From assembly GCA_944324665.1 (NCBI GenBank), contig CALUXD010000003.1:1-64000 (forward strand): a stretch of 64,000 nucleotides of DNA. The letters run 5' to 3'. The DNA comes from Candidatus Proelusimicrobium volucris. Its GTDB lineage: Bacteria > Elusimicrobiota > Elusimicrobia > Elusimicrobiales > Elusimicrobiaceae. Positions within the stretch are counted from its first letter, which is position 1. The number at the start of each line of letters is the position of its first letter. This document shows, piece by piece, positions 28,173 through 58,578 of this stretch. A model generated the notes under the pieces. It was not told where the DNA came from. It saw nothing but the letters and a program-made list of their open reading frames with translations, and did not search any database. Both the position numbers and the translations under genes were made by a program.

Positions 28173-28204
28173 CAAAACGCTCCGCTTTTTTGCGGGGCGT
28201 TTTT
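28173..28204 (+). terminator. Intrinsic terminator after gpmI
   Basis: The stem CAAAACGC(T)CCGC/GCGG(G)GCGTTTT with a T-rich loop is followed by a T-run (28200-28204). It lies 16 bases past the gpmI stop. Confidence 0.8.
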
Positions 28205-28278
28205 GCGTTTGGGGAACGATATGGAGACGTGCGGATTTAATACTAGGCTGCTTGTATATTGGCGGCACATATCCGCGG

Positions 28279-28320
28279 ATAGGACATAAGGTCCGCACAA
28301 CATAGGTCTTAAGTTCCTTG
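28279..28320 (+). promoter_or_regulatory. Composite 42-bp upstream element, copy 1
   Basis: The pattern ATAGGAC-N5-GTCC-N7-ATAGGTC-N5-TYCC-TTG begins 99 bases before the metzincin start codon. Exactly the same spacing occurs before both ankyrin genes at 56988 and 57820. GGAC-N5-GTCC is an inverted repeat, and the two ATAGGWC half-sites are 23 bp apart, about two helical turns. A perfect TATCCGCGGATA palindrome overlaps its left edge here (28270-28281). I infer an operator or special promoter; no consensus -10 is clear in this copy. Confidence 0.6.
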
Positions 28321-28377
28321 TAAAGAAGAGCTTTATTTATTAAATTATTATGTATATACGAGTATTGGAGAGTGAAT

Positions 28378-29790
28378 ATGATTAGGAAATTTTTACTTTT
28401 TATTTTTATGGTTGTATTCTCCTTGCCTTGTTCGGCCTGGGTATTCCTTACGGCAGTCGCCGAAGGGGAAAACGCTCCGTTGTTGACTTATAATATCGTA
28501 AATAATAAACCCATACGCGTTTGTATCGATTTTGTAGAAACTTCTTTTGACCGTTCAAACCGCAAAATAACGCGCAATTATATTCCTGCCGGCGAAAAGC
28601 GCGACAGATATTACAAGCAAGTTTCTTCGGAAATTACTTTAGCTTTAAGGAAATATGTAGATAATGCCAGAAAATATATTGAGCAATCGGGCCGTGCCGA
28701 AGAGTTTGAAGATTTAAAGCCATATCTCAATGATCCGCGCGTGGTATACATAAACGGCGGGCGCGACGCTAAAACGTGCGAGTCTTTCCCGCATGATAAT
28801 TCCGCAATGGATTTAAGGGTAATATTGGAAACGAATGACGAGCTGCGCAGTTATTTGCAAGGGCATAAAGGTTCGGCCTGGCAGGGTGATAGAAATTTTA
28901 TGAAACTCTTTTTCCATCCAGATTATATAGATGACAGATGGATAGATATCTTCTATTATAAATATGAAGATTTGCCATCTTCGGAGCAATCATCTAAAGC
29001 GAGAAGCATACTGTTGGAGCCTACCATAAGGCACGAAATCGGCCACACGCTGGGCCTTGGCGATCAGTATATGCTTGACGATATAAACCAAAGCAAAGAG
29101 TACGGATTGTCGCATATAATGCCGCTTACGGCAATAAATTCCGTAATGGGCGGGCGCGACAAGAACGGGGAGATACAGGCTTTGTCGTGTGACGACGCGG
29201 AAGGCATTATAAATTTGGTCGATTTTTATTCTAAGGACGTATCTTCAAAGCGCAGAACTGAGGGGTGGGCGTCATTATGTTGGAAGAATATAATGTATGA
29301 AGAATGTTTCGCCAGCAAAATAAGCGATGCGGAATATCAAGCCCAGCTTTCTTATGCGAGGAGCGGTTATTCTTCGCCTCGTCCGGATCATATAAGCAGG
29401 ATAAAGCAGGAGCGGCGCGAGCGCTACGCGTCAGCCGCTGCGGCGCAGAATGCTCAGCAAGAGGCGGAAGAAGCCAAACGCCGCGCTGAGGCCGCCGCCA
29501 GAGAGGCGGAATACAAACAGAAGTTAAAGGACCTCTTGAGCAAAGAGGCAGAGTACGGATATTGCCCGGTCTGCAAACAACCGCTTTTAAACACCGATTT
29601 TAACAATATGCGCAGGGTTAAAATACTTTCCGCGCCCCGCCAAAAGGTAACTCAGGGCGATAAAGTGTTTTACAGGTATCCTTACGGACAATGTAAGGTG
29701 AAGATCCATTCCGACTGTTACGAAGCCCTAAAGAGCAAAGGGGGGAAGCTCCCCTGGGCGCAGTGGTGCGCGCAAAGCAAAAAGCAATAG
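28378..29790 (+). CDS. Secreted metzincin-like zinc protease with C-terminal Cys/His module
   Basis: A 470-residue exported protein. The signal peptide covers about residues 1-20 (hydrophobic core, cleavage near CSA-W). The zinc-protease motif HEIGHTLGLGD starts at His219, with three metal ligands and the catalytic Glu220 spaced as in metzincins; the Met-turn is probably Met257 in NSVMGG. After the catalytic domain comes an Ala/Glu/Arg-rich helix (about 340-390), then a possible zinc-binding module with Cys396, Cys399, Cys440, His444 and Cys447 (CPVC and HSDC). GGAGAG sets the ATG at 28378. The family beyond metzincin is not recognised. The substrate may be host or envelope protein, by inference. 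A 42-bp element lies upstream. Confidence 0.82.
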   Translation: MIRKFLLFIFMVVFSLPCSAWVFLTAVAEGENAPLLTYNIVNNKPIRVCIDFVETSFDRSNRKITRNYIPAGEKRDRYYKQVSSEITLALRKYVDNARKYIEQSGRAEEFEDLKPYLNDPRVVYINGGRDAKTCESFPHDNSAMDLRVILETNDELRSYLQGHKGSAWQGDRNFMKLFFHPDYIDDRWIDIFYYKYEDLPSSEQSSKARSILLEPTIRHEIGHTLGLGDQYMLDDINQSKEYGLSHIMPLTAINSVMGGRDKNGEIQALSCDDAEGIINLVDFYSKDVSSKRRTEGWASLCWKNIMYEECFASKISDAEYQAQLSYARSGYSSPRPDHISRIKQERRERYASAAAAQNAQQEAEEAKRRAEAAAREAEYKQKLKDLLSKEAEYGYCPVCKQPLLNTDFNNMRRVKILSAPRQKVTQGDKVFYRYPYGQCKVKIHSDCYEALKSKGGKLPWAQWCAQSKKQ

Positions 29791-55269: not shown

Positions 55270-56991
55270 ATGCGTGTTTTTAAGAGTAACACAACCAGAA
55301 TAGTTATAGCTTGCTTTATAATATTTATGGCTATACCGTTTATATTTGTTGAAAGTTCGGGCGAAGGCAGAAGAAGCGACGTATCAATCCCGTTGGAAAC
55401 GACGTCCAACCCTCTTTCCAAGATAATAGACAGAATAGGATCTTTTTACGGATTTAAGAAACGGCCCGCCCGCGCTTCGTTTAACAAAAGCGGGGCTGCG
55501 CCTTCCGATAACGGAGAGGTGCTGGCTTCGCTTAAGCGTCCCGCGGAGTTATCTTCCGAAGGGCGGATAGAAGGTGCGGGTTTGCCTGCCGCGGGCGGCG
55601 ATATTTTTTCTTCCGACGGTTCTTCTTCCGACGGTTCTTCTTCCGGCGTTAGCGTAAGCGGCGGCGGTGCGGTGCCTGCGGGGCGACTGCCGCAGGTTAA
55701 AGAATATGTCCGTATGGACGGGGAAACTTACGAAGTAGTTACCGATCCGGCGGGCCGCAAGTTTGTGGCTATGCCCGACGGTTTTGTCCCTTACGAAAAA
55801 TTGATGTCCGATACCGTATCTCAGGAGGAGTTTGACGCCGCGCGTGCTCAAGCGCCTGACCTTGAGGATTGGGAAATTTTTGAGGCTCTAAGAAGCCCCG
55901 GCGGCCTTCCGGCTTATTTGGCGAGCGGCGGCAATAATGTCTTTTACAGGGACGACACCCCCGGTTATTATGACAGGGACGGCAAAGAAGGCAGCAGGCT
56001 GTTCGGCCTGCGCGCTGGCGGCCGCGGCGGAGAGGAAGATGATATCTACGACGAGCGCAAACTTATAAAGAGCATTGTTGACAATAAAGAAAGAATCTCC
56101 TCTAAAAAAAGCGGTATTAGCGGCGGTATGCGCGTGAAATATGTGGAAGGCAAAAAAGCTCAAGACGCGGATAATGCCGATACGCAAAATAATAATACTT
56201 TTGCTTCTCTTATAGAAAACGGCGTAATTATCGGCGACGAAAAAGTGGGGCTAAAGGCGGCTTCAAATTCCCAGAGGTCTTTTAGGGAACGCAATAAAGA
56301 ATCCGAATTGGATAAAACCATAAAGCTAAAAGACGAAAGCGTAAATATCTATATGGCAAAAGCTATGGGCGTAGCCAATTTCTCTAAGGAAGACGAAAAC
56401 GGCGAAGAACTAAAAAACCCCTGGGTATATCCGGCGGATTTGGATTTAGCCAATACCCCCGGTAAAAATTTTTTTGACAGCAATGCAAATGTTTTTGCGG
56501 GCAAGGAATATATCAAAGACAATTTTATTCAAAGCGATACGCTGTATCAGTCAGCGATAAAGGACTTAAAGGATTTAAAGACGAAAAACAATCTTGATAT
56601 TAAGCTTGCCGTGGTTGACGGGCTTGAGGAAGACGGCAAAATAAAAGCCGTCTCCAAGGATACCTTCCACTATAAAATAATAGAAAGGCTTACGGAAGGG
56701 GAGGATAAATTCGGCCCGTATGTAGATATAAAACCCGCCGATAAAGCCGATACTTTATTGGTCGTCTCCGACCCGGATACGCTTAATAATTTAAAAAAGG
56801 CGGGCTATAATGCCGTTTTGTTTAACAATTATGCGATAACCCCCTCCGATATGAGCAATTTCTATACAAGCGCCTTAAAGGAAGTTGCTAATATGGCTCG
56901 TTTAAAACAGGAAGGTATTGCGAACCGTCAGGAAGTCCTTGCCAAAACCAAGGATATCGCGGAAGCTAAAGTAGGCATTAGGGGAATATAG
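55270..56991 (+). CDS. Large membrane-anchored or exported protein, unknown
   Basis: A 573-residue protein that I do not recognise. Residues about 9-27 form one hydrophobic segment without a clear cleavage site, so it is probably an uncleaved anchor or signal peptide. A Ser/Gly-rich low-complexity region with an SSDG repeat lies at about 117-138. Then VKEYVRMDGETYEVVTDPAGRKF begins a region that may be folded. The C-terminal third (about 400-545) has alternating strands and helices (KLAVVDGLEEDGKIKAV, DTLLVVSDPDTLNNLKKAGYNAVLFNN), like a Rossmann-type or receiver-like fold. CAGAGGAGGG is an excellent ribosome-binding site. The stop codon lies in the first bases of the duplicated ankyrin unit. 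Confidence 0.75.
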   Translation: MRVFKSNTTRIVIACFIIFMAIPFIFVESSGEGRRSDVSIPLETTSNPLSKIIDRIGSFYGFKKRPARASFNKSGAAPSDNGEVLASLKRPAELSSEGRIEGAGLPAAGGDIFSSDGSSSDGSSSGVSVSGGGAVPAGRLPQVKEYVRMDGETYEVVTDPAGRKFVAMPDGFVPYEKLMSDTVSQEEFDAARAQAPDLEDWEIFEALRSPGGLPAYLASGGNNVFYRDDTPGYYDRDGKEGSRLFGLRAGGRGGEEDDIYDERKLIKSIVDNKERISSKKSGISGGMRVKYVEGKKAQDADNADTQNNNTFASLIENGVIIGDEKVGLKAASNSQRSFRERNKESELDKTIKLKDESVNIYMAKAMGVANFSKEDENGEELKNPWVYPADLDLANTPGKNFFDSNANVFAGKEYIKDNFIQSDTLYQSAIKDLKDLKTKNNLDIKLAVVDGLEEDGKIKAVSKDTFHYKIIERLTEGEDKFGPYVDIKPADKADTLLVVSDPDTLNNLKKAGYNAVLFNNYAITPSDMSNFYTSALKEVANMARLKQEGIANRQEVLAKTKDIAEAKVGIRGI

Positions 56992-57029
56992 GACCAAAAG
57001 TCCTTAAAAAATAGGTCCAAATTCCCTTG
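56988..57029 (+). promoter_or_regulatory. Composite 42-bp upstream element, copy 2
   Basis: ATAGGAC-N5-GTCC-N7-ATAGGTC-N5-TCCC-TTG, 103 bases before the first ankyrin gene and in the same register as the copy before the metzincin. A perfect TATAAT follows at 57045-57050, but the TTG box is too close to it for an ordinary -35, so activator-dependent transcription is plausible. The element begins inside the stop codon of the upstream gene. Confidence 0.65.
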
Positions 57030-57090
57030 AAAACAAGGTGTATTTATAATAGCATTAAGTTATAGGAATATTTTTAAAGGAGCGGCAAAT

Positions 57091-57762
57091 ATGAAGTTTA
57101 AAATAATAACGGCGGCTTTATTATTGGGCATAATGGCGGGCTTTTCGGCCGATGTAATGGCGCAGGTGGGGGTACCGCACAGCAAAAGGGGTACCGGCAG
57201 CCTTTGCGATTATGATAGCAGGACAAGATATTATTATTGGGGAGCTGTTTTTTGCGGTCCTTACGGCGGCGATATGGAGTTTATAAAATTCTGCTATGAA
57301 GATGCTATCTCCCGCGGTTATGTGATAGATAAAGACTATACGGACGGAATTGGATATGTTACGACGTCAGCAGCAGGGTGCGGGCGGCTTGAAGGGCTTA
57401 AGTTCTTTCTTGACAAGGGTTTTTACCTTGACGAAGTAAACAGAGATTCAATGCAGACTCCTTTGCAAATTGCGGCGGAGCAAGGCCACTATGAGGTTTG
57501 CAAGTACCTTTTGGAGAAAGGCGCAAGCCCCTTAAAGAAGTCTTACGCGATACACGAAGACGCATACTACTATGCCAAGCAATCGGGTGTGCATAGCGTA
57601 ATCAAATTAGTGGGCGACGCATGGCGCAAATGGCAAGGATTGGCGGAAGCCAGGCGCGAAGAATATAAGCAAGACATCAAGAATCTTAATCTTAACGATT
57701 ATGAGAAGTTCAAACTGAAACATAATCTTGGCAATTTTAAAGCGGAGATGTTCTTTTCTTAA
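57091..57762 (+). CDS. Exported ankyrin-repeat protein A
   Basis: A 223-residue protein with a cleavable signal peptide (about residues 1-25, ending VMA-Q). The mature N-terminus (VGVPHSKRGTGSLCDYDSRTRYY) is conserved with the neighbouring copy. Ankyrin-like repeats occupy about residues 60-150: GYVTTSAAGCGRLEGLKFFLDKG and QTPLQIAAEQGHYEVCKYLLEKGA are two clear units. A charged C-terminal helix follows. Ankyrin repeats mediate protein binding; an exported form suggests an envelope or extracellular partner. GGAG lies eight bases before the ATG. Substrates and partners are unknown. Confidence 0.85.
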   Translation: MKFKIITAALLLGIMAGFSADVMAQVGVPHSKRGTGSLCDYDSRTRYYYWGAVFCGPYGGDMEFIKFCYEDAISRGYVIDKDYTDGIGYVTTSAAGCGRLEGLKFFLDKGFYLDEVNRDSMQTPLQIAAEQGHYEVCKYLLEKGASPLKKSYAIHEDAYYYAKQSGVHSVIKLVGDAWRKWQGLAEARREEYKQDIKNLNLNDYEKFKLKHNLGNFKAEMFFS

Positions 57763-57785: not shown

Positions 57786-57815
57786 AAAAGCCCGCCTATT
57801 TCGGCGGGCTTTTTT
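57786..57815 (+). terminator. Intrinsic terminator after ankyrin gene A
   Basis: Stem AAAAGCCCGCC/GGCGGGCTTTT with loop TATTTC and a run of six T. Confidence 0.9.
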
Positions 57816-57819
57816 ATGG

Positions 57820-57861
57820 ATAGGACCAAAAGTCCTTAAAAAATAGGTCCAAATTCCCTTG
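57820..57861 (+). promoter_or_regulatory. Composite 42-bp upstream element, copy 3
   Basis: The same element as at 56988, 102 bases before the second ankyrin gene, with the TATAAT at 57877-57882. It is part of the duplicated unit, so this copy is not independent evidence; the metzincin copy is. Confidence 0.65.
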
Positions 57862-57921
57862 AAAACAAAGTGTATTTATAATAGCATAAGTTATAGGAAT
57901 ATTTTTAAAGGAGCAGTAAAT

Positions 57922-58578
57922 ATGAGGTTTAAGATAATAACGGCGGCTTTATTGTTGGGCATAATGGCGGGCTTTTCGGCCAATGTAATGGCGCAGGTGG
58001 GCGTACCGCACAGCAAAAGGGGGACGGGCAGCCTTTGCGATTATGATAGCAGGACAAGATATTATAGCTGGGACAGCGTTTTTTGCAGTCCTTACGGCGG
58101 CGATATGGAGTTTATAGAATTCTGCTATGAAGATTCAATCTCCCGCGGTTATGTGATAGATAAAGACTATACGGATGCAGGCGGATACGTAACAGCCTCT
58201 GCGGCACTGTGCGGGCGGCTTGAAGGGCTTAAGTTCTTTCTTGACAAGGGTTTTTACCTTGACGAAGTAAACAGAGATTCAATGAAGACTCCTTTGCAAG
58301 CTGCGGCGGAACAAGGCCGTTATGAGGTTTGCAAGTACCTTTTGGATAAAGGAGCAAGCCCTTTAAAGAAGTCTTACGCGATACATAAGGATGCATACTA
58401 CTATGCTAAGCAATCGGGTGTGCAGAGCGTAATCAAATTGGTGGGCGACGCATGGCGGAAATGGCAAGGATTGGCGGAAGTCAGGCGCGAAGAATATAAG
58501 CAAGACATCAAAAAACTTAATCTTAACGATTACGAGAGGTTTAAACTGAAACATAATCTTAATGTTTCCAGAGGATAA
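57922..58578 (+). CDS. Exported ankyrin-repeat protein B
   Basis: A 218-residue paralogue of the preceding protein with the same signal peptide (ending NVMA-Q) and ankyrin units (GYVTASAALCGRLEGLKFFLDKG, KTPLQAAAEQGRYEVCKYLLDKGA). Replacements cluster at surface-type positions of the repeats (GIG to AGG, Gln to Lys, His to Arg, Glu to Lys), which may change binding partners. The C-terminus ends NLNVSRG instead of GNFKAEMFFS. I start at the ATG at 57922, with GGAG upstream; a start at 57859 would run through the promoter region. Confidence 0.85.
   Translation: MRFKIITAALLLGIMAGFSANVMAQVGVPHSKRGTGSLCDYDSRTRYYSWDSVFCSPYGGDMEFIEFCYEDSISRGYVIDKDYTDAGGYVTASAALCGRLEGLKFFLDKGFYLDEVNRDSMKTPLQAAAEQGRYEVCKYLLDKGASPLKKSYAIHKDAYYYAKQSGVQSVIKLVGDAWRKWQGLAEVRREEYKQDIKKLNLNDYERFKLKHNLNVSRG

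What the first reader, a model, noticed from the sequence alone, without database searches (positions are those of the whole stretch)
28279..28320. A 42-bp composite element shared in exact register by three exported-protein genes
ATAGGAC-N5-GTCC-N7-ATAGGTC-N5-TYCC-TTG occurs at 28279-28320, 56988-57029 and 57820-57861, starting 99, 103 and 102 bases before the start codons of the metzincin and the two ankyrin genes. The ankyrin copies are a duplication, but the metzincin gene is unrelated and 28 kb away, so at least two independent sites agree in fixed bases and all spacings. GGAC-N5-GTCC is a palindrome and the ATAGGWC half-sites are 23 bp apart on one face of the helix. I found no other copy in intergenic DNA of this window. 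A regulon of secreted proteins under one activator or alternative sigma factor is the likely explanation.
Basis: seen in the sequence. Interest (0 to 1): 0.75.

Follow-up and report, generated by a model that had tools for sequence, protein, structure and literature searches.

The report
Shared control switch for secreted-protein genes
A paired DNA control element sits directly in front of about 27 genes for exported proteins in this Elusimicrobium-like gut bacterium and recurs across its class; it is most likely the binding site of one response regulator and so exposes an undescribed secretion programme in a barely studied phylum.

Summary
It comprises two dyad-like boxes (TRGGHCY-WW-RGDCCYA), 23-24 bp apart. 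The inner box abuts TTG, the -35 of a sigma-70-type promoter whose 17-bp spacer and -10 box emerged without being selected for. A sequence model finds 28 sites in the genome (E<0.05); 27 precede genes with a signal peptide, including six metzincin-type proteases. A scan of 84,980 species genomes for box plus promoter returns almost only Elusimicrobiota: 63 of 71 next genes have a signal peptide, against 117 of 459 neighbouring genes (odds ratio 23, p=6e-25). It occurs throughout Elusimicrobiaceae and in other families of the class, but not in five family-f10 genomes tested. The geometry (boxes centred near -42.5 and -65.5) is that of a tandem-site activator; no alternative sigma factor is needed. 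Best regulator candidate: a NarL-family response regulator related to VraR and DevR/DosR, with a DevR-type recognition helix, in a conserved operon with a Cache-domain sensor kinase. It is the only GerE-domain protein in seven element-bearing genomes, and the box accommodates the DosR core GGGACTWWAGTCCC. The regulon is strongly supported; regulator and activation are inferred.

The parts
28280..28294 (+). outer box of element 1 (TAGGACATAAGGTCC)
   Evidence: sequence; box family
28303..28317 (+). inner box of element 1 (TAGGTCTTAAGTTCC)
   Evidence: sequence; logo
28318..28346 (+). predicted promoter: -35 TTGTAA 28318-28323, 17-bp spacer, -10 TAAATT 28341-28346; start expected near 28353
   Evidence: fixed TTG-N20-TAnnAT columns in 34 stacked elements
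28378..29790 (+). exported metzincin-type protease (470 aa, signal peptide, HEIGHTLGLGDQY)
   Evidence: no Pfam match, so the fold is inferred from the zinc motif
56989..57003 (+). outer box of element 2 (TAGGACCAAAAGTCC), overlapping the stop codon of the preceding ORF
57012..57026 (+). inner box of element 2 (TAGGTCCAAATTCCC)
57027..57055 (+). predicted promoter: -35 TTGAAA 57027-57032, -10 TAGCAT 57050-57055 (a TATAAT at 57045-57050 would leave a 12-bp spacer)
57091..57762 (+). exported ankyrin-repeat protein, 223 aa
   Evidence: Pfam Ank_2 1.4e-8, signal peptide
57821..57835 (+). outer box of element 3
57844..57858 (+). inner box of element 3
57859..57887 (+). predicted promoter: -35 TTGAAA 57859-57864, -10 TAGCAT 57882-57887
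57922..58578 (+). second exported ankyrin-repeat protein, 218 aa (duplicate)
   Evidence: Pfam Ank_2 1.1e-7, signal peptide

Best explanation
The 42-bp element is the operator half of a promoter class. A dimeric activator binds two 14-16-bp dyads, TRGGHCY-WW-RGDCCYA, whose centres lie about 42.5 and 65.5 bp before the transcription start. The inner dimer abuts the -35 and helps sigma-70 RNA polymerase start transcription. Shown here by computation: the fixed anatomy, about 27 such promoters in this genome, their near-exclusive use for exported proteins, and their presence across class Elusimicrobia. Inferred: activation rather than repression, the transcription start, and the regulator. The best candidate is the NarL/FixJ-type response regulator 'RR-B' (G000 contig 2 near 15,690; L349 4727-5389), encoded just downstream of a dCache-HAMP membrane kinase and a receiver-kinase hybrid. 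An outside signal would then switch on a set of secreted proteins that includes metzincin-type proteases and ankyrin proteins.
For: Unselected -10 at a fixed 17-bp spacer and fixed box positions in 34 stacked elements. Box spacing 23-24 bp. 28 sites in the own genome, 27 before signal-peptide genes, of which 24 by the heuristic and 3 (L189, L191, L200) by eye. 63/71 against 117/459 background in named genomes. Sites in 52/52 family genomes and before signal-peptide genes in 23 of 28 best hits outside the family. RR-B: full-length relative of VraR and DevR with K-T-I-K-N aligned to DevR K-T-V-K-N; RR-B is the only GerE protein in seven element-bearing genomes; f10, f4, f3, f11, f12 and G209 lack RR-B-type proteins in what was read, and lack the enrichment, apart from three f10 genomes enriched for the short unit only. 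DosR operator TTSGGGACTWWAGTCCCSAA fits the box (PMC2275270); DevR promoters have packed sites with the inner one overlapping -35 (PMC3029386). Conserved RR-B operon.
Against: No binding or expression data. RR-B-type proteins occur in G202, G224 and G154 without enrichment of the short unit. No box stands before RR-B or its kinases. Regulator families other than GerE were not surveyed, so co-occurrence could reflect shared ancestry only. KT[VI]KNH-like helices are common in this family (general knowledge). Signal peptides were called by a simple heuristic.
Confidence: 0.62

Rival explanations
1. Same promoter class and regulon, but the activator is another protein: the second NarL-type regulator RR-A, or a regulator of a family not surveyed here.
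For: RR-A is also present in the family. Other regulator families were not searched.
Against: RR-A is missing from G213 and six other element-bearing genomes whose only GerE protein is RR-B. Box shape and size match operators of RR-B's relatives.
Confidence: 0.25
2. The boxes bind a repressor that shuts off these strong promoters until a signal arrives.
For: The promoters carry recognisable -35 and -10 boxes, and the inner box abuts the -35.
Against: A second box fixed further upstream near -65 is typical of activators. The conserved part of the -35 is only TTG (position 4 T 21/34, later positions weak) and -10 boxes such as TAGCAT are imperfect, as expected of activator-dependent promoters. 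Repressor sites usually overlap the core promoter or the start.
Confidence: 0.09
3. An alternative sigma factor reads the 42-bp element itself as its promoter.
For: Fixed spacings; a single functional class of genes.
Against: The boxes are dyads and sit upstream of a separate TTG-N20-TAnnAT promoter. Some promoters score without the outer box (L196, L200).
Confidence: 0.02
4. An RNA hairpin pair in the leader of the transcripts.
For: GGNC-N4-GNCC can pair.
Against: Upstream of the predicted -35, so not transcribed from it; no Rfam match.
Confidence: 0.01
5. A short mobile or scattered repeat, or chance similarity.
For: Two of the three window copies are a tandem gene duplication.
Against: Copies share box and promoter columns, not flanks; fixed distance before one gene class; zero in shuffles; reversed-pattern controls far lower in the family.
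Confidence: 0.01

Closest known systems
DevR/DosR regulon of Mycobacterium tuberculosis and OsdR of Streptomyces
   Same: NarL-family response regulator; palindromic operator with the core GGGACTWWAGTCCC, or AGGGCCGATCGGCCCT for OsdR (PMC2275270, PMC5069765); two or more closely packed sites, the inner one overlapping the -35 (PMC3029386); regulon of tens of genes.
   Different: Targets here are exported proteins, not dormancy genes; the sensor is a dCache-HAMP kinase plus a hybrid; the box is looser (TRGGHCY half-sites); no box before the regulator gene; other phylum.
VraR/LiaR-type regulators of Firmicutes
   Same: Best full-length relatives of RR-B among solved structures (VraR, E=7e-39).
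   Different: VraR controls a cell-wall stress response (general knowledge); its helix has KTVKTH where RR-B has KTIKNH.
DegU of Bacillus (secreted degradative enzymes)
   Same: A NarL-type response regulator that controls secreted enzymes (general knowledge).
   Different: Operator of another type (general knowledge); not compared here by sequence.

Membership tests
DevR/DosR-type regulon | Palindromic box with core GGGACTWWAGTCCC | tested here: met
   RGGHCYWWRGDCCY accommodates all 14 core positions; e.g. GGGACTAAAGTCCC at L192. Many boxes deviate in one half-site.
DevR/DosR-type regulon | Two or more boxes, inner one at the -35 | tested here: met
   compare PMC3029386
DevR/DosR-type regulon | NarL-family regulator with DevR recognition residues K179, K182, N183 | tested here: met
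   RR-B aligns K-T-I-K-N to DevR K-T-V-K-N. That RR-B is the regulator is inferred.
DevR/DosR-type regulon | Hypoxia/dormancy target genes under DosS/DosT-type kinases | tested here: not met
   Targets are exported proteins; the kinase has dCache-HAMP-HisKA domains. Hence 'works like DevR', not 'is the DosR regulon'.
DevR/DosR-type regulon | Phosphorylated regulator binds the boxes and activates | not testable with these tools
   needs gel shift and reporter assays
Alternative-sigma-factor promoter | Element itself occupies -35/-10 and no sigma-70 promoter follows | tested here: not met
   TTG-N20-TAnnAT follows at fixed distance
Structured RNA leader | Transcribed conserved RNA or known family | tested here: not met
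   No Rfam match; upstream of the predicted -35

The most novel reading that the evidence does not exclude
A class-wide phosphorelay of Elusimicrobia (dCache sensor kinase, receiver-kinase hybrid, RR-B, next to TadE/TadG-like pilus genes) is a dedicated master switch of a secreted-protein programme, using a DosR-like operator for exoproteome control.
Probability: 0.45. Interest if true: 0.7.

Novelty: new member of a known kind. Interest (0 to 1): 0.6.

Why it matters
The literature searches made here found no description of a regulon or operator in Elusimicrobiota. This element defines one directly from sequence: about 27 co-regulated, mostly uncharacterised exported proteins per genome, in gut and environmental members. 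It gives a ready test list for what these bacteria do to their surroundings and names one regulator and one sensor to test. The pattern can also be used to pick out secreted proteins in unannotated genomes.

Tried and rejected
Rfam gave only tRNAs. The ankyrin protein has no relative in viral contigs, and the promoter region has no match in phage records. Paper searches on Elusimicrobia regulation found nothing on point. Pfam and NCBIfam name few targets. Considered and dropped: alternative sigma factor, RNA hairpin, mobile repeat, DNA uptake signal (the boxes are tied to promoters, not scattered). Structure prediction was not run, because sequence already places RR-B with VraR and DevR.

Full report
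OBSERVATION. The three copies are exactly where stated, with 0 expected by chance and no fourth copy in the window at up to 3 mismatches. Starts lie 99, 103 and 102 bases before ATG. Read directly from the sequence, a terminator-like hairpin followed by T's stands between the upstream gene and element 1 (about 28177-28208) and between the two ankyrin genes before element 3 (about 57790-57816), so these elements begin separate transcription units.

ANATOMY. Thirty-four elements from the own genome and relatives, anchored only on the inner box and TTG, were stacked without gaps. Four blocks appear. The outer box is TAGGHCYWW...CC. The inner box is TAGGTCYWWAKNCCC, 23 bp further on. TTG follows directly (in the own genome often as CTCTTG). 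TAnnAT stands exactly 20 bp after TTG (second position A 31/34, fifth A 30/34, sixth T 30/34) although it was not used for selection. If TAnnAT is -12 to -7, the box centres are near -42.5 and -65.5. Full dyads such as TAGGTCTAAAGACCTA occur in relatives. Over 135 sites the outer box is 23 or 24 bp from the inner one in 52 of 75 upstream dyads found at any distance of 10-49 bp; shuffled upstream DNA gives 6 in total.

DISTRIBUTION. The 15-base unit is enriched over the reversed-pattern control in nearly all genomes of the family and less regularly elsewhere in the phylum. A sequence-only model R1 finds 28 sites at E<0.05 in the own genome once reverse-strand duplicates are merged, and sites in 52 of 52 family genomes, typically 10-30 each. 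Among 39 other genomes of the phylum it finds sites in families f2, f5 and f7, and none in five f10 genomes. An exact scan of 84,980 named species genomes for box plus TTG-N20-TAnnAT listed 80 of 100 stretches; 69 of the 80 titles name Elusimicrobi- taxa, many of them Elusimicrobiaceae or Elusimicrobium from animal guts.

WHAT THE PROMOTERS DRIVE. In the named scan 63 of 71 next genes have a signal peptide, against 117 of 459 other genes in the same stretches (Fisher p=6e-25). The eight clearly foreign hits (Gastranaerophilales, Methanoplasma, Sulfurovum, Clostridia, Christensenella, Spirochaetae, Flavobacterium, Rufibacter) lie inside genes or lack an exported gene, as chance hits should. In the own genome 27 of 28 sites precede a signal-peptide ORF: 24 by the heuristic and 3 by eye (L189; L191, whose ORF is interrupted; L200, far downstream). 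The exception, L202 (E=0.02), is probably chance. Only part of the exported proteins is covered: of 12 heuristic signal-peptide genes in the window, 3 have the element. Targets include six proteins with HExGH-x5-DxY (metzincin-type zinc site), three ankyrin proteins, a HEAT-repeat protein, a protein with a glutaminase-like domain and a weakly UshA-like protein; most have no known domain. Outside the family, 23 of 28 best hits, one per genome, also precede a signal-peptide gene. Orthologues keep the element where spacers differ: the ankyrin protein at 49% identity (L046, L233) and a 428-aa protein at 59% (L077); these were fetched through the element, so the comparison shows conservation of form, not its frequency.

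REGULATOR. The own genome has two NarL-type response regulators. RR-B aligns over its full length with VraR and DevR; the DevR residues K-T-V-K-N align with K-T-I-K-N. From general knowledge K179, K182 and N183 of DevR contact DNA; a paper cited in PMC12919924 reports in its title that K182G impairs binding. SVKTxKNHLN, with small variations, is present in the f1, f2, f5 and f7 RR-B proteins read. Of eleven genomes with a single GerE protein, seven have four or more model hits, including G213 with 25, and in all seven the single protein is RR-B. GerE proteins read from f3, f11, f12, f10 and G209 are of other types, and most f10 and both f4 genomes have none. RR-B's neighbourhood is conserved in f1 and f5: dCache-HAMP sensor kinase, receiver-kinase hybrid, RR-B, TadG/TadE-like genes, with an exported protein ahead of the kinase in f1. 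Published operators of this family match: DosR TTSGGGACTWWAGTCCCSAA (PMC2275270) and OsdR AGGGCCGATCGGCCCT (PMC5069765). DevR promoters have closely packed sites with the inner one overlapping -35 (PMC3029386).

WHAT IS SHOWN AND WHAT IS INFERRED. Shown by computation: the element, its spacing, its tie to a promoter, the exported-protein bias, the taxonomic range. Inferred: the transcription start, activation, RR-B as binder, the nature of the signal. Counter-evidence kept in view: G202, G224 and G154 have RR-B-type proteins without enrichment of the short unit; no box stands before RR-B; other regulator families were not searched.

VERDICT. The kind of system, a response regulator with tandem boxes at a set of promoters, is known; the regulon, its operator and its range in this phylum appear undescribed.

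Noticed in passing
L191 (G000:C2 545281-545352, minus strand): The signal-peptide ORF behind this promoter stops shortly after a run of seven A, and the rest of the protein continues in another frame: a broken gene, a sequencing error or slippage at the A run.
   Followed up: partly
G173, G105, G146 (family f10): These genomes are enriched for the short unit TAGGNCYWWWNNYCC (e.g. 23 against 0 reversed in G173) but have no promoter-model hit: a different repeat, or contamination.
   Followed up: no
L185/L204 (G000:C2 628183-628290): Two divergent exported-protein genes are driven from overlapping elements on opposite strands, with two model hits back to back.
   Followed up: partly
L349 4727-7194: RR-B lies directly ahead of TadG/TadE-like genes in f1, f2 and f5 genomes, hinting at a link between the signalling operon and a Tad-type pilus.
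   Followed up: partly
own-genome targets L177, L187, L190, L194, L197, L203: Six regulon members share HExGH-x5-DxY, a paralogous set of exported metzincin-type proteases that Pfam does not recognise or recognises only weakly.
   Followed up: partly
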